Below, piece after piece: positions 12,956 to 23,059 of a DNA stretch of 64,000 nt. The notes beneath the pieces were generated by a model. That model saw only the letters and a program-made list of their open reading frames with translations, was not told where the DNA came from and ran no database searches. The position numbers and the translations under genes were made by a program. This DNA is from Eubacterium sp. 1001713B170207_170306_E7 (lineage in GTDB: Bacteria > Bacillota > Clostridia > Eubacteriales > Eubacteriaceae). The stretch lies in assembly GCF_015547515.1 (NCBI RefSeq), contig NZ_JADMVE010000004.1:186001-250000 (forward strand), in the 5' to 3' direction. The stretch's first letter is position 1; the number at the start of each line of letters is the position of its first letter.

Positions 12956-13600
12956 CTACAGCTGTTTCAGATACGCCTCCTCCCCGAGCAGCTCCCGCTT
13001 CACCCTGTCCATCGCCCGGCTGCACTGGTACTGGACAGTGGAGCGGTTCTGCCCTCTTTCCAAAGCGATCTCGGCGTAGCTGATCCCCTCCATAAAATGC
13101 CGGCAGACGTCCTCATAGGTTTCCTGAACCATCTGTTTTCGCATCACCGCCAGCACCTTTTGGGCCATACAGCCCCTGATGGCCTGATCCTCTGTATTGC
13201 AGGCGGCCGGGAACCAGTCGATTTTCCAGCAGTCCTCCTCTCCGTCTTCCCCGGCCACCTTTTCATCCAGCGAACAGGCAAACCGCTTTCTCTCAAGCCC
13301 AATCCGCCAAATCCGGTTTAAAATCATAAACCGCAGGCGGTTTTTCAGGTAATGCCTGAAATAGACATGCCGGTAATTGACCACATCGAAATCCTCGATG
13401 GCCTCCAGGATCTGCAGGCAGGCCTCCTGGCACATTTCCACCCGCTCCTCCTTATGATAGAAGGAACGGTAAACCATGCTGTAAGCCATGGGCTTAAAGA
13501 GGTTAACCACTGCCAGCTTCATGGCCTTATCGCCCTTCTGGGCCATTTCGATAAAGCTCAGGATCTCAGCCTGATTATCCTGCTCAGTCACCCTGCCCAT
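12956..13600 (-). CDS. RNA polymerase sigma-70-like factor, phage-module type
   Basis: 214 residues. A region-2-like part (LFKPMAYSMVYRSFYHKEERVEMCQEACLQILEAIEDFD) and a region-4-like HTH near the C terminus (ISYAEIALERGQNRSTVQYQCSRAMDRVKRELLG) resemble small sigma factors of phages and conjugative elements. The ATG at 13600 has GGGAG; it overlaps the upstream gene by 17 nt, so translation is probably coupled. Last gene of the five-gene overlapping module. It could act as an element-specific sigma factor or as an ArpU-like late regulator; which one is not resolved. Confidence 0.6.
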   Translation of the reverse strand: MGRVTEQDNQAEILSFIEMAQKGDKAMKLAVVNLFKPMAYSMVYRSFYHKEERVEMCQEACLQILEAIEDFDVVNYRHVYFRHYLKNRLRFMILNRIWRIGLERKRFACSLDEKVAGEDGEEDCWKIDWFPAACNTEDQAIRGCMAQKVLAVMRKQMVQETYEDVCRHFMEGISYAEIALERGQNRSTVQYQCSRAMDRVKRELLGEEAYLKQL

Positions 13601-14156
13601 GACCGCTGCTCCCATCCGCGGGCAACAGGTCTTTGTGCTCTGCCAGCTCCCCGACCAAATGCCGCACATTTTCCGGCAGCTCCTCCAGGGCGCGCTGCCG
13701 TCCCCGGCAGGCCCGGTAGCTGCGCATAAAATTGGACTGGATAACCGAATGGAAGGTTCCCGCATCCATCAGAGCCCACTCCCGCAGGCTGGCCGGAGAG
13801 CCTACAATGCCGCGGATGTCCTCCGGCAGCTTCTCGAACTCCTCCTTGGCATACCAGGCCGAGTTCTTAACCGCCCCCGACAGCCGCTGCCAGGCCTCCA
13901 TCTCCGAGAGCTCCGGCGCTGTGGTAAAAAGCCTCAGCTTGTCCAGCACCATGCCCACCGAGGGCGGAAAGCCCTTTCGGTCACTGGCGATAAAGGCCCG
14001 CACCGCGCCGGATACCAGCGGGTACTCATAGTCTTCAAGCATCCCCTGCCAGAGGCTGACCACGGTTTTCAGGTCCTCCTCGGACTGGTTGCTGTAATAG
14101 TAGGGATAGGCTGCCTTGATCACAGCCATAATTTTCAACGTTTCATTTCGGTTCAC
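13584..14156 (-). CDS. Putative replicative helicase loader/inhibitor (G39P-like)
   Basis: 190 residues. The N-terminal 75 residues (MNRNETLKIMAVIKAAYPYYY..., then LWQGMLEDYEYPLVSGAVRAFIASDRKGFPPSVGMVLDKL) match the pattern of phage helicase loader/inhibitor proteins such as SPP1 G39P, which bind the replicative helicase and prevent or direct its loading. The C terminus is variable, as in that family. It overlaps the preceding gene by ATGA (14153-14156). Confidence 0.6.
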   Translation of the reverse strand: MNRNETLKIMAVIKAAYPYYYSNQSEEDLKTVVSLWQGMLEDYEYPLVSGAVRAFIASDRKGFPPSVGMVLDKLRLFTTAPELSEMEAWQRLSGAVKNSAWYAKEEFEKLPEDIRGIVGSPASLREWALMDAGTFHSVIQSNFMRSYRACRGRQRALEELPENVRHLVGELAEHKDLLPADGSSGHGQGD

Positions 14157-14602
14157 ATTTCCTCCTCATTATTTAACATTTTTAAAAAAGGGTTCGTGGT
14201 TTCCTTTTGTCTCTTTTTGTCTGGTTTGTTTTGTTTATAGAATGCCGCGCTGCTGCCCGAACTGCCGGCCGCAGAACCGCCCCCACTGCTGCCCGCAGTG
14301 CCGCGCACCTCACGGACACGCCCAGAGACGGGGTGCATGTGGTATTTTGCCGGAATCTCCCCCGAGGCTCCCGGCACAAAATCAATGAGCCCCCTTTCCT
14401 TAAGCACCCTTCGGGCACCGAGGATACCGTTGTCCGACAGCCCCGAGAAAGCCCGCAGCGTCATATTCGGCGCGGTAAACCAGCTCTTCCAGCCACAGAC
14501 ACAGAGATTGTTGACCATCATGAGCCCGTGCCACAGGGATATCCGCCCAGAGGCCAGAGGCCTCAGCAGCAGATAATCCCGCATGGCGTTGAGCTCCGTC
14601 AT
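14153..14602 (-). CDS. Phage-type replication initiator N-terminal domain protein
   Basis: 149 residues. Helix-turn-helix region NAMRDYLLLRPLASGRISLWHGLMMVNN...FTAPNMTLRAFSGLSDNGILGARRVLKERGLIDFVPG (about 6-85) resembles the winged-helix N-terminal domain of DnaD-like phage replisome organizers. A Gly/Ser-rich linker and a basic tail (KPDKKRQKETTNPFLKML) follow. There is no DnaD C-terminal domain, so this may be a short or truncated form. ATG at 14602 begins 4 nt after the upstream stop. Confidence 0.55.
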   Translation of the reverse strand: MTELNAMRDYLLLRPLASGRISLWHGLMMVNNLCVCGWKSWFTAPNMTLRAFSGLSDNGILGARRVLKERGLIDFVPGASGEIPAKYHMHPVSGRVREVRGTAGSSGGGSAAGSSGSSAAFYKQNKPDKKRQKETTNPFLKMLNNEEEM

Positions 14603-14606
14603 GTAG

Positions 14607-15137
14607 TTAAGCCCCACGCTCCACCTGCTCCAGCATTTCCTCAAGCTTCTTGCAGCGGCGGTGCAGCTCAATATACGCGCGGGCCAGTGTCCCGGCCTCA
14701 CAGCCGCATTCCTCGGCGGGGACCGGTTCCCTGCCCTCCTCATAGTGGTAAAGGACAGAGGTCCTGGCGCTCACCTTGTGAAGCATTTCCAGGGCGCTCA
14801 CCTTTTGCTTAAACAGCTCCGCGGCCCATTCCAGCTTTTTCCTGTCCTTCATGAGCGGCAGCAGCACCTGCAGGCCGCGCAGGTTCACCATCCACATATG
14901 GCGGTGCCTTCCCCCGTAATACACCCGGCGCTTGCACTTGTCCTCCAGAGCCACCAGCGCGGCTATCTTGCTGGCCGAGGCGTATCCGAGCAGAGGCAGG
15001 ATCGGGCTCAGCGCCAGCCATACTACCGGCTCTCCGCCGTAATTCATGGGCGGTTCAATGACCGCCGGTATGGCCTCAAGGCCCTGCAGCCAGATGTAAT
15101 CATAACAGGTGGTGTCTGTAATGGTAAATCTATGCAT
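14607..15137 (-). CDS. Hypothetical protein, possible antirepressor-like fold
   Basis: 176 residues. The part VVWLALSPILPLLGYASASKIAALVALEDKCKRRVYYGGRHRHMWMVNLRGLQVLLP (about 45-100) follows the layout of BRO/antirepressor N-terminal domains (W-x-A...LGY...S.I..L...DK...GR...N..GL). The C terminus is helical and charged. It overlaps the previous gene by 8 nt, and the ATG at 15137 follows GGGGGAAA. Function is unproven; the position in a replication-like cluster fits an element regulator. Confidence 0.45.
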   Translation of the reverse strand: MHRFTITDTTCYDYIWLQGLEAIPAVIEPPMNYGGEPVVWLALSPILPLLGYASASKIAALVALEDKCKRRVYYGGRHRHMWMVNLRGLQVLLPLMKDRKKLEWAAELFKQKVSALEMLHKVSARTSVLYHYEEGREPVPAEECGCEAGTLARAYIELHRRCKKLEEMLEQVERGA

Positions 15138-15618
15138 AGCATTGTTTCCCCCAGGCCACAGCCTTTTCTTCCAGAAACTCAAGCGTAGCGGCCACACTCT
15201 CCGAATCCGCTTCCTCATCCAGCAGCTCTGCCAGACGGCGGATCCCCGCGATATCCGTTGTTGGCAGAAAATCGATCAGCTCCAGCTTGTGGGGCGCCGC
15301 CGCGATGCGCACAACCACGCCCAGCTCATCGTAGTGATCCGAGATAAAAGCGTCAATATCTTCTCGCTTTCCCATAAGCGCCGCCACCTCCCGGATATTG
15401 AAGTAGGGTGTGCCTTCCTTGCCATACACCACGGTTACCGGCTTCTCCGGCGCCCGGCCCACAAACACCGTGCGGTCATAATATGTCATTAATAATTTTT
15501 CATTGTTCATCTGCAAATCTATGAGCTCCATACAGAACAGCTGATCCAGCGTCGTAATAACCGGCTGATCCTTCAGCTCCTCCGGTTTGACAATACTCAT
15601 GTTTATTTTTCGATTCAT
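15130..15618 (-). CDS. Hypothetical protein, first gene of the phage-like module
   Basis: 162 residues. The middle contains VYGKEGTPYFNIREVAALMGKREDIDAFISDHYDEL (about 85-120), again reminiscent of an antirepressor N-terminal domain, followed by an acidic helical tail. No close family is recognised. The ATG at 15618 has AAAGGAAC. A 14-bp palindrome lies at 15635-15648 just before the ribosome site and a TATAAT lies further up, so this gene likely leads the operon through to the sigma-like gene. Confidence 0.45.
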   Translation of the reverse strand: MNRKINMSIVKPEELKDQPVITTLDQLFCMELIDLQMNNEKLLMTYYDRTVFVGRAPEKPVTVVYGKEGTPYFNIREVAALMGKREDIDAFISDHYDELGVVVRIAAAPHKLELIDFLPTTDIAGIRRLAELLDEEADSESVAATLEFLEEKAVAWGKQCYA

Positions 15619-15634
15619 TTAATTGTTCCTTTCG

Positions 15635-15718
15635 GAACACCGGTGTTCTTTGTTTTTCAAGCTTGTAGGTGTATTATACCGGGCCCGGCCCGCCGCCGCA
15701 AACCGCGGGTTGGCCGGG
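15635..15718. promoter_or_regulatory. Promoter/operator region of the phage-like module
   Basis: On the minus strand TATAAT (15672-15677) is the -10 box, and TTTGCG 18 bp upstream is a weak -35 box. A CCGGGCCCGG palindrome (15679-15688) fills the spacer. GAACACCGGTGTTC (15635-15648) is a perfect 14-bp palindrome in the leader. CCCGGCC/GGCCGGG (15684-15690, 15712-15718) forms a further inverted repeat. The density of symmetry suggests repressor control. Confidence 0.45.
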
Positions 15719-15822
15719 TAATCCGTCAAAAAAGAGTAATATATGGCTTTTTATAAGGGTTTTTCGGGTATTATTTTGCACTTTTTCCATAAAAGCGCAC
15801 CGACCCCTTTAAAACAAAAAAT

Positions 15823-15850
15823 AAAAAAAACAGAAAGCCAAAGCTTTCTG
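15823..15850 (-). terminator. Terminator of the toxin-antitoxin operon
   Basis: CAGAAAGC, CAAA loop, GCTTTCTG, then TTTTTTTT on the minus strand. Confidence 0.85.
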
Positions 15851-15869
15851 CCAGATGTGGTTTCGTTAT

Positions 15870-16175
15870 CTAATAGAATAATTTTGTATATTCCGTTTGG
15901 GTGTCCGCAATATGGTAAATAAAAACAGTATCCCCGATCAATCGGTAAATCGCAACCTGCTTTTTACAGATCACCATACGGTATCCTCTCTCATTCAGCC
16001 ATCTATCTGGCGTCAAAGATCCCGAGTTTGGAAAGATCTCTAAACGTTCGAGGACATCCAAAATATGGTCTGCTACGCTAACGGCTATCTCCTCATTAAA
16101 CTGAACCGTATAATAATCTTCTATTTTTTTTAAATCTTCCCAGGCTGTCGGCAGAATTCTCACTTTATACATCAT
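15870..16175 (-). CDS. RelE/ParE-family toxin
   Basis: 101 residues, typical for the superfamily. It begins YKVRILPTAWEDLKKIEDYY, has a middle block SLTPDRWLNERGYRMVICKKQVAIYRLIGDTVFIYHIADTQTEYTKLFY, and ends with the compact beta-sheet pattern of ParE/RelE toxins, which block gyrase or cleave mRNA on the ribosome. Which activity applies cannot be told from the sequence. It overlaps the antitoxin by 11 nt. Confidence 0.85.
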   Translation of the reverse strand: MMYKVRILPTAWEDLKKIEDYYTVQFNEEIAVSVADHILDVLERLEIFPNSGSLTPDRWLNERGYRMVICKKQVAIYRLIGDTVFIYHIADTQTEYTKLFY

Positions 16176-16431
16176 TTATTCTCTTACGCAGCTGCTCTCT
16201 TGCCTCAGACAGGCTTAATGCTTTTTCTCCATTTAAACGTTCCTCTTCTGCCTGCAGCACCCGGGCCCGTAACTCCAAAATTTGTTCTCTTTTTTCAAAG
16301 GCGTCAATGCTCATCAAAACCATGTCCCCTTCGCCGTTCTTAGTAATATAAATTGGTTCTTTTGTTTCTTTGGCAAGACTTGAAATTTTCGCATAATCAT
16401 TTCTAAGTGTGGCCGATGCTTTAATAATCAT
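16165..16431 (-). CDS. Phd/YefM-family antitoxin
   Basis: 88 residues. The N-terminal Phd fold (IIKASATLRNDYAKISSLAKETKEPIYITKNGEGDMVLMSIDAFEKRE) is followed by a charged helical tail that would wrap the toxin. The ATG follows AGGAGGGTG. The promoter has a palindrome across its -10 box, fitting autorepression by the antitoxin or the complex. The pair sits next to a phage-like module and may act as an addiction unit. Confidence 0.87.
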   Translation of the reverse strand: MIIKASATLRNDYAKISSLAKETKEPIYITKNGEGDMVLMSIDAFEKREQILELRARVLQAEEERLNGEKALSLSEAREQLRKRINDV

Positions 16432-17165: not shown

Positions 17166-17750
17166 CTAAGCCTGCCTCCTTTTTCCATACAGCGCCGCCA
17201 GCGACGACAGCGCAACCGTCAGAAGCCCCAGGGCCGCTCCGGCAGGCGCCGCGTTCCCGGGCGCCAGGTACCAGCCCGTCATGATCAGGGCCGTTAATAT
17301 CACCACAGTCAGCTTTGCCAGACGGCTCAGGCGCGCACGCTCCGCCCCGGTCAGCGGCTTATTCTCATGGGCCACCGGCGCTGTGAGCACAATGACCGGC
17401 ACGCCCAGGACAAGCGCCCCCAGAATAACCGGCAGGTAGTAAAGCGGCGGCAGAAAGGTGATCACTGCCAGAAACACCGAAAAAATGACCGTAAAGCTCA
17501 GGATACAGAAAAAATGTGAGGACGCGTGGTACCCTCCCGCAGACTGCCGGAGCACCAGAAAGGTGAGGACAAAGCCCACGCCCCCGGCTACCTGACCGGT
17601 GAGGCCAATCAAAAGCACCACCACCGCCAGATTGATAACCGCAGACAGCAGGAGCTCAAAGCTGTAAATATAGACCTCCCGGTCCTCAGCGTCAATGATG
17701 CGGTGGTGAATGAAGATGGACGTTAGTTTTTGGGATAGGTTGTGGATCAT
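17166..17750 (-). CDS. agrB: AgrB-family peptide-processing membrane protease
   Basis: 194 residues with about five to six membrane segments. The AgrB signature RQSAGGYHASSHFFC gives the catalytic pair His75 and Cys82, spaced seven residues apart as in Staphylococcus AgrB. AgrB cuts the C-terminal tail of the AgrD pro-peptide and forms the thiolactone ring. The ATG follows AGGAG. Its likely substrate is the 50-residue product of 18492-18644, with the two separated by a secreted-protein gene and a pseudogene rather than adjacent. More GC-rich than agrC/agrA, so it may have a separate history. Confidence 0.9.
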   Translation of the reverse strand: MIHNLSQKLTSIFIHHRIIDAEDREVYIYSFELLLSAVINLAVVVLLIGLTGQVAGGVGFVLTFLVLRQSAGGYHASSHFFCILSFTVIFSVFLAVITFLPPLYYLPVILGALVLGVPVIVLTAPVAHENKPLTGAERARLSRLAKLTVVILTALIMTGWYLAPGNAAPAGAALGLLTVALSSLAALYGKRRQA

Positions 17751-17774
17751 GGGGGATCTCCTATTTTATAATAT

Positions 17775-17945
17775 TTAATGCCAGAAATTCTGCTTCAGCT
17801 TTTCCAGGTCCGTATCAAAGCAATCCGATAATTCCTGATATTCTTCCACATCCAGCAAGGGTTTCCAGTCTATGAGCCGGGTTTCGCCTTTTTTGATAGA
17901 CTAGATGATTTGCCAGGGAGTATGGTTGTTGTAAACTTTACTCAT
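17775..17945 (-). pseudogene. Remnant resembling a small DUF2442-like protein, interrupted by TAG
   Basis: A 57-codon frame starts at ATG 17945 (MSKVYNNHTPWQII), meets TAG at codon 15 (17901-17903), then continues without a break as SIKKGETRLIDWKPLLDVEEYQELSDCF...NFWH to TAA. The G-E-T-R-L-I-D-W-K-P-L-L pattern resembles DUF2442 proteins, which often pair with DUF4160. No ribosome site precedes the later part. A decayed gene is the simplest reading. Confidence 0.45.
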
Positions 17946-17992
17946 CTAATTTAAAAGTTCTTTCTGTTTTTTATTTCATCGTGTAAACAAGA

Positions 17993-18021
17993 GCAGATAG
18001 CATAGTTATAATGCTATCTGC
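17993..18021 (-). terminator. Hairpin after the secreted-protein gene
   Basis: An 11-bp perfect stem (GCAGATAGCAT/ATGCTATCTGC, 7-nt loop) follows the stop of the secreted protein. The T-run on the minus strand is modest (CTCTTGTTT). The rest of the agrB to secreted-protein gap holds only the pseudogene. Confidence 0.6.
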
Positions 18022-18067
18022 TTTAAACAAAACACTTATTTATTCTGTCTTACAAAAATTCTTTAAC

Positions 18068-18397
18068 TCAAGCGCTTCCTACTAGATTTCCACCATACAA
18101 CACGGCAATATTATTGCCAGTAGTTACAGTTCTGATTAATTTAAGCCATCCTGAAACATAAGCTCCACCATACCATCCTTCTCTATAAAGACTAGTAGGA
18201 ATATAGTCTCCTACAGAATAGTTCATCCATTCTTCATGATATACAGTAACAGCGATTCTTGGTTGTATCTCTCCAGTTTGTATTGTTGTTGTTTCTTCAT
18301 TGGTTACTTTTTCATTTGCGAAAGCCGGCATCATTAGCGTCGTCATAATCAATAAAACAGCCACCAAAGAAACTGACAGTTTCTTACTTAGTTTCAT
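18068..18397 (-). CDS. Secreted small protein within the agr locus
   Basis: 109 residues. A classical signal peptide (MKLSKKLSVSLVAVLLIMTTLMMPAFA, likely cut after AFA at 27) leaves a mature protein of about 82 residues. That part starts with an acidic/Thr-rich stretch and then has an aromatic, Gly-rich body (YHEEWMNYSVGDYIPTSLYREGWYGGAYVSGWLKL, ending AVLYGGNLVGSA). There are no cysteines. ATG at 18397 follows AAAGGA. It lies between agrD and agrB on the same strand with low GC. Family not recognised. It may be a secreted effector, bacteriocin-like peptide or surface factor controlled by the agr circuit; this is inference from position. Confidence 0.65.
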   Translation of the reverse strand: MKLSKKLSVSLVAVLLIMTTLMMPAFANEKVTNEETTTIQTGEIQPRIAVTVYHEEWMNYSVGDYIPTSLYREGWYGGAYVSGWLKLIRTVTTGNNIAVLYGGNLVGSA

Positions 18398-18491
18398 TGT
18401 TTTTTCCTTTCTTATCATATTTTTTATATTTTTCCGTATATTATTTACTTCCCATTGGTATCACCCCTCTATCAAGTTATACATTTGAAAC

Positions 18492-18644
18492 TTATTTTTT
18501 ATATTTCGCCATTCTTTCCGGTTCTTTTGGCTGGTAGAATCCAAAACAAGCTGCAGCATTAGATGTAAAAATCCCCATTTCTAAAGCCAAAAATACAAAC
18601 AAAGGACCAAACCGTATCAATGCTTTTTTTACTTTACTTTTCAT
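18492..18644 (-). CDS. agrD: AgrD-like cyclic lactone autoinducer pro-peptide
   Basis: A 50-codon gene. The product starts MKSKVKKALIRFG, has an amphipathic/hydrophobic N-terminal helix (PLFVFLALEMGIFTSNAA), then the core ACFGFYQPKEPE and a charged tail (RMAKYKK). This layout matches the cyclic lactone autoinducer family: a Cys four residues before an aromatic residue (Cys33-Phe-Gly-Phe-Tyr37) as a five-residue thiolactone ring, followed by the conserved QPK-x-P-E cleavage tail. A ribosome site (AGAGGTAG) lies 6 nt before the ATG. It follows agrC (110 nt) and precedes the secreted-protein gene. AgrB at 17166-17750 would process it. Confidence 0.88.
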   Translation of the reverse strand: MKSKVKKALIRFGPLFVFLALEMGIFTSNAAACFGFYQPKEPERMAKYKK

Positions 18645-18671
18645 TTTTACTACCTCTTTTCAAATTTCTAT

Positions 18672-18709
18672 AAAAAAACTATCTTTAAATTAGGATAATT
18701 TAAAGATAG
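18672..18709 (-). terminator. Intrinsic terminator/attenuator between agrC and agrD
   Basis: A 14-bp perfect AT-rich stem (CTATCTTTAAATTA with TAATTTAAAGATAG, 3-nt loop) followed by TTTTTTT on the minus strand. Only 27 nt separate the T-run from the agrD start, so no separate promoter is visible downstream of it. Confidence 0.75.
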
Positions 18710-18753
18710 CATGATTTCGTTTTCTTATAAAGAGGGTTCGCAGAATTGACGGT

Positions 18754-20061
18754 TTATATCGCAGAATCAACAGAGTCTTTAAGGTTTAAATTGATCATCA
18801 GATAAAACCAGCCGTTTTTAACCTCATAATCCATCGTCCCATCATATTGTTTTGTTAACTGATATATTGTTTTAAGACCAAAGCCATGGTTCACCTGATC
18901 TTTTTTCGTTGTAATCAACCCATCTGAATCTTTGACTGGTTCTTTATCAATAGTATTTTTTATGTCGAGCAAAAGCATCCCCCCTGTTTTACGTAAGCTT
19001 AATATGATTTCCCCCTGTCCACAAGGCATTTTCTCACATGCCTCTAATGCATTATCCAATGCGTTTCCTAAAATAATACACAAATCCATCTCATCAACAA
19101 GTAACTCTTTTGGTAAAGAAATTTTCATATCAAACTGTATATTTTTTTCAAGAGCTTTAGTCTTTTTAACATTAACAACAGCATCAATTGCAGGATAGCC
19201 AGTACTGTAAGTAAGTTGTTTTATTGTGTGTATTTGCCTATCAACATATTGTCTAGCGGCATTTACATCTCCTATATCCAAATATCCTGAAAGTGCAATA
19301 AAAGCATTTTTCAAATCATGACGTATTTTTCTCATCTCTTCATTTGAGGATTCTAAACTCTGATAATAAGTACGTTGATTTTCGATTTGCTGCTTCAAAA
19401 AAAACTCCTTCAGGTTCTGTTCTTCAAGCTCTTCCTCCTTTTCAAAAAAGATAAATGAATAGATATTCCCAATAAAAAGGCCCGCAATCCCAATTAAACA
19501 CATCATTATACTAAAAGGATTTTCCATATCACTAAAGCTGAGTAATTGATACAATAAAACAATACTAGCCAAAGGAAGTACTAAAAGATAAATAGTTTTT
19601 TTGATAAATAGTTTACTAAAATCTGTTTTGTTACGAACGTACACAAAACTCACAAAACATAAAATTAAAAACTTTGTTAAAAGATTGCCCATTAACATTA
19701 ATTCAGCAGTAAAGCGAATCGTTTCGATATTTTCGCCACTTAAGAACATCAGTATGTATATAGCCAGTACATCACACAAAGCCATGACCACGCAGAAAAC
19801 CAGCGTCGCAACTAAACTGATCTTTACAGGAACACGATAAATAAAAAACATCAAAATACAGGCTGCTGCAGTAAATGAAATTAAAAGCAGTGGATTTTTC
19901 ACAAAGACAAGAGAAATCAAAATCCAAAGGCTTACCAGCGTGACTTCAAGCACAATCCAGCGCCGTTTAATCTTTTTCTCCCGTGAAAAGGCACGTACCC
20001 AATAATAAATCAAAACCGCCTCAAACACGGCCGCAAAGATTTGTACCCATATCTCCTTCAT
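18754..20061 (-). CDS. agrC: AgrC-like GHKL sensor histidine kinase
   Basis: 435 residues. Six or so membrane helices occupy roughly residues 5-210, then a coiled linker (EKEEELEEQNLKEFFLKQQIENQRTYY). The kinase core has the H-box RKIRHDLKNAF near 250, N-box NALDNALEACEK and G-box HGFGLKTIYQL. This is the HPK10/AgrC arrangement that senses thiolactone peptides. The gene starts 1 nt after the response-regulator stop, so the two are cotranscribed. The DNA is AT-rich compared with the phage-like region and hemW. Its natural ligand would be the AgrD-derived peptide encoded next door. Confidence 0.87.
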   Translation of the reverse strand: MKEIWVQIFAAVFEAVLIYYWVRAFSREKKIKRRWIVLEVTLVSLWILISLVFVKNPLLLISFTAAACILMFFIYRVPVKISLVATLVFCVVMALCDVLAIYILMFLSGENIETIRFTAELMLMGNLLTKFLILCFVSFVYVRNKTDFSKLFIKKTIYLLVLPLASIVLLYQLLSFSDMENPFSIMMCLIGIAGLFIGNIYSFIFFEKEEELEEQNLKEFFLKQQIENQRTYYQSLESSNEEMRKIRHDLKNAFIALSGYLDIGDVNAARQYVDRQIHTIKQLTYSTGYPAIDAVVNVKKTKALEKNIQFDMKISLPKELLVDEMDLCIILGNALDNALEACEKMPCGQGEIILSLRKTGGMLLLDIKNTIDKEPVKDSDGLITTKKDQVNHGFGLKTIYQLTKQYDGTMDYEVKNGWFYLMINLNLKDSVDSAI

Positions 20062-20062
20062 A

Positions 20063-20779
20063 TCAAATGCCTACTTTGCTTTGATAGTCTAAATGAGCTT
20101 TTTTTGCTTCATTTTTATATTTTCTGCTGACCGGCAGCGGTTCTTCCCGATCTTTTAAAAACACCTTATCACTGAGGAACTTTTTAATATACTGCATATT
20201 AATGAGATAGCTCTGATGGATACGGATAAATCCATGGGCGGCGAGCCGCTTTTCTTCTTCATTCAGCTTGCCGACAATTTTATAATCTTTATCCTTTGTA
20301 TGGATAATCACACTCCATCTTTGGGATTCTAAATAAATGAGCGCTGTTATTGGAACACTCATTCTGACACTGTTATACTCAAAATTATATTTTTGTTTTT
20401 TTAGAACATACTGTGCCAGCGCCCTGTCTATTTCCTCATGAAAAAAGGAATCATCTAAAGGCTTTTTCAGATATTGAAAAGCATCTAACCGAAACGCATG
20501 GGAAACATAGGCATCATGCGAGGTCACATAGATTAACAGAGTCTCCTCAAACACTGTTTTTAAACGGGCTCCGAGGGTAATTCCGTCCATATCCGGCATC
20601 TCAATATCCAGAAAGACCAGATCAAAAGGCCTTTTTTCTGCCGATTGTAAAAGCGCCTGTCCTCTTTCAAAAAATAAAATCTCCGGTTTAAACTTTTTAT
20701 CCTTAAAATAATCCTCAAGCCGTTTTTTCAAGTCCTGTCTGAAATAGACTTCATCATCACACACACCAATTCGGAACAT
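20063..20779 (-). CDS. agrA: AgrA-like LytTR response regulator
   Basis: 238 residues. The N-terminal receiver has the acidic pair DD at 8-9, phospho-acceptor Asp58 in VFLDIEMP, Thr/Ser (YVTS) near 105 and Lys in LKKP near 126. The C-terminal LytTR DNA-binding domain is clear (ITALIYLESQRWSVIIHTKD...FIRIHQSYLINMQYIKKF...LPVSRKYKN). AgrA/ComE-type proteins bind paired imperfect direct repeats upstream of targets; I could not identify such repeats by eye. It is the first gene of the agrAC unit. Confidence 0.87.
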   Translation of the reverse strand: MFRIGVCDDEVYFRQDLKKRLEDYFKDKKFKPEILFFERGQALLQSAEKRPFDLVFLDIEMPDMDGITLGARLKTVFEETLLIYVTSHDAYVSHAFRLDAFQYLKKPLDDSFFHEEIDRALAQYVLKKQKYNFEYNSVRMSVPITALIYLESQRWSVIIHTKDKDYKIVGKLNEEEKRLAAHGFIRIHQSYLINMQYIKKFLSDKVFLKDREEPLPVSRKYKNEAKKAHLDYQSKVGI

Positions 20780-20940: not shown

Positions 20941-21444
20941 TTATGTCACTTTCTCAAAATAAACCCGCACTCTGTTATCCTCTGGCACAAGCTCGGCGCG
21001 ATCCATATGGTATTCGATTCCCTGATCCTTAACCGATTCATTTAATGCTGACAGATCACTCTCCATTTTTTCTTTACATTCATCCCACGATTCATAGTAT
21101 TTTAGAATATATACATCTTTGTTGACGCTTCTGTATGTGGCATCAACCTTTGAATCGGAGCTTGGCGCACCGTCTGTATAGCGTATGTCTGTTAGAACGA
21201 TTTCTGCTTTATCCGGGTCCACAAGCGCGTTCATTGTCTCCAGATCCTTTTGGTATTCCGACCGGAACGCCTTGATATTGTCGTACTGTTTAAAAATCGC
21301 GTTCTGATTGTTCTCTACCTGTTCTTCCATGGTTTTTTCCACTTTGTTTTCCTTCTGCTCATCTTTTTTATTCAGCGTGCATCCTGACAACGGCAAAGAC
21401 AAAACAAGCAATGCCAGCATTGCTGCGAACAATTTCTTTTTCAT
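20941..21444 (-). CDS. Putative lipoprotein, paralog of the one at 22541
   Basis: 167 residues. A lipoprotein signal peptide with lipobox LSGC (Cys20) is followed by a Lys/Glu-rich linker and a conserved body: EEQVENNQNAIFKQYDNIKAF, LETMNALVDPDKAEIVLTDIRY, ILKYYESWDE, LSALNESVKDQGIEY, RAELVPEDNRVRVYFEKV. The same blocks occur in order in the 172-residue lipoprotein at 22541-23059. ATG at 21444 follows GGGAG; the in-frame extension upstream lacks a ribosome site. It would be a surface protein facing the peptide signals of the adjacent agr locus. Family unknown. Confidence 0.75.
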   Translation of the reverse strand: MKKKLFAAMLALLVLSLPLSGCTLNKKDEQKENKVEKTMEEQVENNQNAIFKQYDNIKAFRSEYQKDLETMNALVDPDKAEIVLTDIRYTDGAPSSDSKVDATYRSVNKDVYILKYYESWDECKEKMESDLSALNESVKDQGIEYHMDRAELVPEDNRVRVYFEKVT

Positions 21445-21535
21445 TTTTTCTCCCTTCTTTCGGGTTTTATCCCTAAAAATCTCGGGCACTCCCAAGCTTA
21501 CTTTTTTAGATTAGACCTCTCCTTTTATTTTATCA

Positions 21536-21563: not shown

Positions 21564-21782
21564 AGATCCTTCGCAAAATTAACACTCTATCTCACAATAT
21601 TGACCAAAATATTATCTTTTCAAACGGCTTTATTTCCGCTCAACCACATCCACATCCTTAATGAAGAAAAATCCTGCAAAGTATCTCAAATCAAAGTCTA
21701 TTGACAGGGCTTTTTCCTTTCTGTTTGTGGCGGACGACAGGATAAAAGGGGAGGTTTATCATGCAACATTCAAGGAATACTA

Positions 21783-22540: not shown

Positions 22541-23059
22541 TTAACTCTTTCCATCCACCTTTTCATAATAGGCCCGGACATTCTCCTGCTCTGGCACAAG
22601 CTCTGCGATGGTGGGCTTATAGGTGACGCCCTGATCCCTCACGCTCTCATTCAGGGCTGCCAGGTCGCTTTCTTTTAATGCGCCGTATTCTTCAAAAGAG
22701 TCGTAATACTTCAGCACATATTTATCTTTATCAATCATTTTGTAAGTTGCTTTTACTTTTGATGTATTTTTTGTCGCGGTCTGCAGATTCTCGTATTCAA
22801 GATTAGTCAGCACAATGTCGTATTTCTTTGGGTCCACCAGGCCGTTCATGGTTCTCAGGTCATTCTGATACACGGCTCTGAAGGCCTTGATATTATCGTA
22901 TTCCTTAAAAATAGTGCTTCTGTTATTCTGAACCTGCTCCTCAATGCTCCTCTCGGACAGAGGGATTTCCTCGCTCTTATCTTCCTCTGCCGAGCAGCCA
23001 AAAAGGGATAAACAGCAGACAGACAACAACACAAGCACTGCCAATCGTTTCTTTTTCAT
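22541..23059 (-). CDS. Putative lipoprotein, paralog of the one at 20941
   Basis: 172 residues. Signal peptide with lipobox SLFGC (Cys22). The body shares with the 20941 product the blocks EEQVQNNRSTIFKEYDNIKAFRAVYQ, MNGLVDPKKYDIVLTNLEY, YVLKYYDSFEE, SDLAALNESVRDQGVTY and AELVPEQENVRAYYEKV. It lies between a four-segment and a two-segment membrane protein gene, with 25-nt gaps on each side, so the three are probably cotranscribed. Confidence 0.75.
   Translation of the reverse strand: MKKKRLAVLVLLSVCCLSLFGCSAEEDKSEEIPLSERSIEEQVQNNRSTIFKEYDNIKAFRAVYQNDLRTMNGLVDPKKYDIVLTNLEYENLQTATKNTSKVKATYKMIDKDKYVLKYYDSFEEYGALKESDLAALNESVRDQGVTYKPTIAELVPEQENVRAYYEKVDGKS

What the first reader, a model, noticed from the sequence alone, without database searches (positions are those of the whole stretch)
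17166..20779. Complete agr-like quorum-sensing locus with a small AgrD pro-peptide gene
The 153-nt gene at 18492-18644 encodes a 50-residue peptide with the AgrD plan: hydrophobic N-terminal helix, ring core CFGFY, then the QPKEPE tail. It stands with an AgrB protease (His75/Cys82), an AgrC-type kinase and a LytTR regulator. The predicted signal is a thiolactone with ring Cys-Phe-Gly-Phe-Tyr. Unlike the staphylococcal order B-D-C-A, here the order is A-C-D-secreted protein-pseudogene-B. A gene this short is easy to miss in annotation.
Basis: partly seen in the sequence, partly recalled or inferred. Interest (0 to 1): 0.75.

Follow-up and report, generated by a model that had tools for sequence, protein, structure and literature searches.

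The report
Swappable agr quorum-sensing and cargo cassette
A gut-type Eubacterium carries a real peptide quorum-sensing locus in which the signal, its receptor and regulator, and the secreted protein they probably control look like an exchangeable cassette plugged next to one conserved signal-processing gene, agrB.

Summary
18492-18644(-) encodes an AgrD pre-peptide (TIGR04223, 25.5 bits, cut-off 19), with AgrB (His75/Cys82), an AgrC-type kinase and a LytTR regulator. Function is inferred; no transcript or peptide data exist here.

New evidence. (1) A LytTR-type operator (9-bp direct repeats, 12-bp spacer, 10 bp before -35, 16-bp spacer, TG-extended -10) lies upstream of agrD, and a second with identical geometry precedes a lipoprotein gene (21574-21603). 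A 26-position motif finds three sites in the whole genome, none in the control. (2) In three sister genomes agrB and its flank are 89-95% identical, but agrA-agrC-agrD are strongly diverged at third positions, and the D-to-B interval holds different cargo: a bacteriocin-like module with C39 exporter, or a secreted protein with an ABC transporter. (3) In the species with the most divergent AgrA (39%), the operator words before agrD differ and one half-site of the lipoprotein operator is deleted. (4) The predicted AIP ring varies (CFGFY, CFWQY, CWGWQY) while the YQPKEPE tail stays fixed.

Verdict: a genuine agr system; order A-C-D-B also occurs in this genome's second agr locus. Unusual are the cargo between D and B and a conserved AgrB. 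New variant of a known kind.

The parts
18492..18644 (-). agrD: 50-aa AgrD-type pre-peptide, predicted ring CFGFY, tail QPKEPERMAKYKK
   Evidence: TIGR04223 25.5 bits over cut-off 19; orthologues in 3 sister genomes
17166..17750 (-). agrB: membrane endopeptidase, His75/Cys82
   Evidence: PF04647 117 bits; 89-95% identical in sister species
18754..20061 (-). agrC: sensor histidine kinase (GHKL ATPase, SPOB_a, H-D-L-K-N box)
   Evidence: NF046015 HisKinAgrCStaph 60.9 bits, below equivalog cut-off
20063..20779 (-). agrA: response regulator with LytTR DNA-binding domain
   Evidence: PF00072 and PF04397
18741..18770 (-). LytTR-type operator before agrD: TTGATTCTG-N12-TCAATTCTG
18703..18730 (-). putative agrD promoter: TTATAA-16-TATCTT with TG extension, 10 bp after the operator
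   Evidence: read; conserved positions in alignment A2
18672..18709 (-). perfect 14-bp inverted repeat plus T-run: AT-rich terminator-like hairpin after agrC, overlapping the putative agrD -10/start region; a hairpin of different sequence sits at the same place in G002
18068..18418 (-). secreted cargo protein SecP: Sec-type signal peptide, 109-116 aa, no known relatives
17992..18022 (-). terminator-like hairpin after the cargo gene
17775..17945 (-). broken small ORF with in-frame TAG, C-terminal ...KLKQNFWH; relative of small peptides encoded next to polyprenyl-synthetase-like genes in G002/G003; degraded trace before agrB in G002 too
21574..21603 (-). second LytTR-type operator TCAATATTG-N12-TTAATTTTG before the lipoprotein gene; -35 TTTACA at 21563-21558 and -10 TATATT at 21541-21536
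20941..21495 (-). lipoprotein gene, predicted second target of AgrA (function unknown)
   Evidence: lipobox LSGC; operator before it

Best explanation
This is an apparently intact agr (cyclic-peptide) quorum-sensing circuit. AgrB (17166-17750) probably cuts the 50-residue AgrD after Tyr37 and closes a thiolactone ring CFGFY. The exported peptide activates AgrC, which phosphorylates AgrA. AgrA binds 9-bp direct repeats at two promoters: agrD-secP (positive feedback plus a secreted protein) and the lipoprotein gene at 20941-21495. The agrA-agrC-agrD-cargo block behaves as an exchangeable pherotype-plus-effector cassette between conserved flanks, while agrB is resident and serves whichever cassette is present. 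Shown by sequence: gene families, repeats and their geometry, strongly diverged cassettes between conserved flanks, conserved AgrB. Inferred: processing by this AgrB, ring size, AIP sensing, AgrA binding, exchange by recombination, and a competition function for the cargo.
For: AgrD over the TIGR04223 cut-off; AgrB, AgrC and AgrA families. Direct repeats with 21-bp period upstream of agrD in four species; at this offset the 9-bp match is 9/9 in the window (0 of 1000 Markov-chain randomisations reach it) and 9/9 in G002 (0.003); weaker in G001 and G003 by the 9-bp measure (0.06, 0.03) but 0.006 and 0 of 1000 by the 13-bp measure. A motif with 26 specified positions and up to 3 mismatches gives 3, 3 and 2 sites in G000, G001 and G003, including agrD and the same lipoprotein gene each time, with 0 in the reversed-pattern control. 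Both window promoters have 10 bp from operator to -35 and a 16-bp -35/-10 spacer, matching the 12-bp repeat spacing and 10-bp offset published for LytTR promoters (PMC6193735). G002, with AgrA 39% identical and words CAGAAACTG-N12-CAGAAACTG, has lost one half-site of the lipoprotein operator. Cassette: third-position identity 0.29-0.58 in agrC/agrD against 0.78-0.92 in agrB and the next gene; matching DNA resumes 12-54 bp before agrB; G+C 33-38% in agrA/C/D and cargo against 59% in agrB. Cargo differs: C39 exporter with Bacteriocin_IIc-like peptide in G001, secreted protein plus ABC transporter in G002/G003.
Against: No expression, peptide or binding data. The genome's second AgrB (C8) could process AgrD1 instead. 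A terminator-like hairpin after SecP means agrB may be transcribed apart from agrD. A third motif copy lies inside a mobile element without an evident promoter, so the motif may not mean AgrA binding everywhere. The cassette reading rests on only four species. SecP has no relatives, so its role as effector is position only.
Confidence: 0.78

Rival explanations
1. An ordinary agr locus that has simply diverged fast between species; the different genes between D and B are unrelated insertions, with no exchange of cassettes and no functional link of cargo to the circuit.
For: agr loci are polymorphic in general (PMC12312760); SecP and the other cargo have no shown regulation; only four species could be compared.
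Against: Third positions in agrC/D are strongly diverged while agrB and the next gene are not, G+C changes abruptly, and AgrA is 90% and the first 40 AgrC residues 100% identical between the window and G003, then fall to 47%, a mosaic pattern. Cargo starts directly behind agrD under the agrD operator.
Confidence: 0.15
2. AgrD1 is processed by the second AgrB (C8 locus); the agrB at 17166 is a leftover or serves another peptide, such as the ancestor of the broken small ORF beside it.
For: agrB is separated from agrD by SecP, a terminator-like hairpin and a broken ORF; a second AgrB with its own AgrD exists.
Against: agrB1 is conserved at 89-95% aa with intact catalytic residues in all four species, always in the same block as agrD1; the C8 AgrB sits beside its own AgrD2 with a different tail (HQDKLPE).
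Confidence: 0.12
3. The repeats before agrD and the lipoprotein gene are not AgrA operators but remnants of transposon ends or another regulator's sites.
For: Similar sequence occurs in an intergenic stretch of a mobile element in G000 and G001, without an evident promoter.
Against: Only three genome copies; identical 10-bp/16-bp promoter geometry at both genes; different words with the same geometry in the species with a different AgrA.
Confidence: 0.12

Closest known systems
Staphylococcus aureus agr (agrBDCA)
   Same: AgrB, AgrD, AgrC-type kinase, LytTR AgrA, operator of direct repeats, allelic variation of AIP ring and receptor.
   Different: Order A-C-D-cargo-B; agrB conserved rather than part of the hypervariable region (in S. 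aureus it spans agrB, agrD and agrC, PMC12312760); candidate effector genes inside the locus.
Clostridium acetobutylicum agr with downstream effector CA_C0082
   Same: agr locus in Clostridia with an adjacent effector gene controlled by Agr (PMC10301443).
   Different: There agrBD and agrCA are operons and the effector (LanM-like) lies after agrA; here cargo lies between agrD and agrB and differs by species.
Streptococcus pneumoniae blp locus (BIP-BlpH-BlpR with its bacteriocin immunity region)
   Same: Peptide quorum sensing controls a syntenic but highly variable bacteriocin/immunity region (PMC7595303).
   Different: Double-glycine pheromone exported by BlpAB; here a cyclic AgrD/AgrB-type signal.
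Second agr locus of the same genome (C8, L003)
   Same: A-C-D-B set with an AgrD (43.6 bits to TIGR04223).
   Different: Compact, no cargo between D and B, different AIP region (NTACWLFNHQDKLPE).

Membership tests
agr-type cyclic-peptide quorum sensing | AgrD pre-peptide: hydrophobic helix, Cys ring core, charged PxxPE-type tail | tested here: met
   TIGR04223 25.5 bits, cut-off 19; alignment A1
agr-type cyclic-peptide quorum sensing | AgrB endopeptidase with catalytic His and Cys | tested here: met
   PF04647 117 bits, cut-off 23; His75/Cys82 read directly
agr-type cyclic-peptide quorum sensing | AgrC-type polytopic histidine kinase | tested here: met
   HATPase_c_5 85 bits, SPOB_a 30.7 bits
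agr-type cyclic-peptide quorum sensing | LytTR response regulator | tested here: met
   PF00072 and PF04397
agr-type cyclic-peptide quorum sensing | LytTR operator (9-bp direct repeats, about 12-bp spacer) at an autoinduced promoter | tested here: met
   geometry from PMC6193735. Presence of the sites only; autoinduction itself not tested
agr-type cyclic-peptide quorum sensing | Secreted thiolactone peptide made by this AgrB and sensed by this AgrC | not testable with these tools
   needs LC-MS and mutants
staphylococcal agr proper | agrBDCA order with agrB inside the hypervariable region | tested here: not met
   order A-C-D-cargo-B; agrB 89-95% aa while agrC/D 32-77%
blp-like bacteriocin locus | Double-glycine pheromone with C39 exporter as the signal system | tested here: not met
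   signal is AgrD; a C39 exporter occurs only as cargo in G001

The most novel reading that the evidence does not exclude
A single resident AgrB is a general-purpose processor onto which complete signal-receptor-regulator-weapon cassettes are swapped by recombination, each bringing its own AIP, AgrC, AgrA, operator sequence and bacteriocin-like cargo; outlying targets such as the lipoprotein gene then lose their old operator.
Probability: 0.45. Interest if true: 0.62.

Novelty: new variant of a known kind. Interest (0 to 1): 0.47.

Why it matters
In S. aureus AgrB varies together with AgrD and AgrC and shows substrate specificity. Here nature pairs one nearly constant AgrB with at least three predicted AIP rings, which makes AgrB's substrate rules testable. 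It also suggests that quorum-sensing pherotype and competition cargo travel as one cassette in acetogens of the gut type, and gives a ready natural experiment on how a regulon is rewired when its regulator is replaced.

Tried and rejected
SecP: no Pfam, NCBIfam or PHROGs family above threshold, no PDB, plasmid or viral relative, none in 398 genomes sampled from the phylum; single-sequence AlphaFold model too poor to search (mean pLDDT 49). Search with the agrB protein in genome contigs gave only E. callanderi. Transposon-end reading of the repeats: only three genome copies, so not favoured. G002-type operator words: one exact site in G002; the 2-mismatch matches elsewhere are at control level. 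AgrB tree: the four agrB1 form their own clade, no donor found. Literature: no paper in the held library on an E. limosum agr locus.

Full report
What was claimed and what is there. The window lies in a 4.27-Mb genome (G000). A relative of the same genus, G001, has a contig C18 of the same length (419,753) as the E. callanderi FD contig returned, so this is an Eubacterium of the limosum/callanderi group (inference). The 50-residue peptide at 18492-18644 matches TIGR04223 at 25.5 bits against a cut-off of 19. AgrB matches PF04647 at 117 bits, and residues 75 and 82 are His and Cys. The kinase carries GHKL and SPOB_a domains, the regulator a receiver and a LytTR domain. The finding is confirmed.

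Comparison with sister species. The genus search found two agrB genes in each of G000-G003. At the locus in question the flanks are shared: one or two lipoprotein genes upstream, agrB and the 114-aa gene downstream. Nucleotide matching resumes 12-54 bp in front of agrB in all three comparisons at 89-94% identity. AgrB is 89-95% identical in protein and 0.81-0.89 at third positions, like the neighbouring gene (0.78-0.92). AgrC and AgrD are 0.29-0.58 at third positions; AgrA is 0.42-0.51 except window-G003 (0.87). G+C is 33-38% in the window's agrA/C/D and cargo but 59% in agrB. Window and G003 AgrC are 100% identical over the first 40 residues and 47% around residues 120-160, where G001 and G003, which share the AIP core CFWQY, are 75% identical. 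This mosaic is what recombination of cassettes would leave, and the last point is a hint, from three sequences only, that this AgrC segment follows the signal.

Cargo. Between agrD and agrB, G001 has a C39-peptidase exporter (TIGR01193, 628 bits over cut-off 524), a 122-aa GG-leader peptide resembling Bacteriocin_IIc (24.8 bits, just under the cut-off of 27.1), small membrane proteins and an HlyD-type adaptor; G002 and G003 have a secreted 143-144-aa protein, membrane proteins and an ABC ATPase. The window has only SecP, a 109-116-aa protein with a Sec-type signal peptide and no detectable relatives, followed by a terminator-like hairpin and a broken small ORF.

Signal. Four AgrDs keep M1, K2, K4, G13, A20, L21, G24, A30 and the block Y37-QPKEPE-43, while the ring reads CFGFY, CFWQY, CFWQY and CWGWQY. 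Parts likely to be read by AgrB are thus constant and the part likely to be read by AgrC varies. In S. aureus the hypervariable region includes agrB, and AgrB shows substrate specificity (PMC12312760); here agrB lies outside the variable block. That one AgrB processes all variants is inferred.

Regulation. In front of agrD lie 9-bp direct repeats with 12-bp spacer (18741-18770), 10 bp before TTATAA-16-TATCTT with a TG extension, and a perfect hairpin with T-run that would end agrC read-through. The spacing agrees with published LytTR promoters (12-bp spacer, 10 bp upstream of -35; PMC6193735). A pattern built from these found, in the whole genome, the agrD site, one before the lipoprotein gene 20941-21495 with the same 10/16 geometry, and one in a mobile element; G001 and G003 also have the agrD and lipoprotein sites; the reversed control gave none. 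The agrD and lipoprotein sites of these species helped to shape the pattern, so their recovery is not independent; the small total number is the informative part. In G002, where AgrA is 39% identical, the words before agrD are CAGAAACTG twice, in the same geometry, and one half-site of the lipoprotein operator is deleted although the flanking DNA matches G001 closely. This is the strongest evidence that these repeats are AgrA's operators, and it is still only sequence evidence.

How unusual. Of 28 AgrD loci from outside the genus, 23 have an agrB within the roughly 3-kb stretch examined, mostly immediately adjacent; two of the five exceptions are shortened by contig ends. The genome's other agr locus is a compact A-C-D-B set. 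So the order is not unusual and the cargo between D and B is the peculiarity. Cargo beside agr loci is known in C. acetobutylicum, and variable bacteriocin regions under peptide control are known in pneumococcal blp. I found no paper on this locus in the held library; absence there does not prove novelty.

The broken ORF. The frame at 17775-17945 has a TAG at codon 15 and ends ...KLKQNFWH. It has relatives of 51-54 aa in G002 and G003 that end in or near Trp and lie directly before genes with weak similarity to polyprenyl synthetases. That is the layout of comX and comQ (PMC4008528), though no ComX model was matched. A degraded trace also precedes agrB in G002. This is a lead, not a result.

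Verdict. A true agr quorum-sensing locus; a new variant because of the probably exchangeable signal-plus-cargo cassette beside a conserved agrB. Confidence is high in the family assignment, moderate in the cassette and operator reading, low in the biological role of SecP.

Noticed in passing
G000:C8, L003:6638-9569: Second, compact agr locus in the same genome (AgrA, AgrC, AgrD2 with NTACWLFNHQDKLPE core, AgrB2), with counterparts in the sister genomes searched.
   Followed up: partly
L050:1456-2532 and L051:1459-2493: Small peptides ending in or near Trp directly before polyprenyl-synthetase-like genes: a possible ComX/ComQ-like pair in Eubacterium; the window's broken ORF at 17775-17945 is a relative.
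   Followed up: partly
L065:6784-6813 and L066:6523-6552: LytTR-operator-like repeats almost identical to the agrD operator, in an intergenic stretch of a mobile element after a very long helicase/methylase-like ORF, in antisense orientation without an evident promoter. Unexplained.
   Followed up: partly
20941-21495 and 22541-23059: Two paralogous lipoprotein genes (about 50% identical) upstream of agrA, both kept in G002 and G003; function unknown; the operator was found only before the first.
   Followed up: partly
13584-16431: Phage-like genes (helicase-loader-like 13584-14156) and a Phd/ParE-type toxin-antitoxin pair (15870-16431) next to the agr locus.
   Followed up: no
L013:3800-4080 (G002): Clean loss of about 12 nt covering the second operator half-site before the lipoprotein gene in the species with the most divergent AgrA.
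   Followed up: yes
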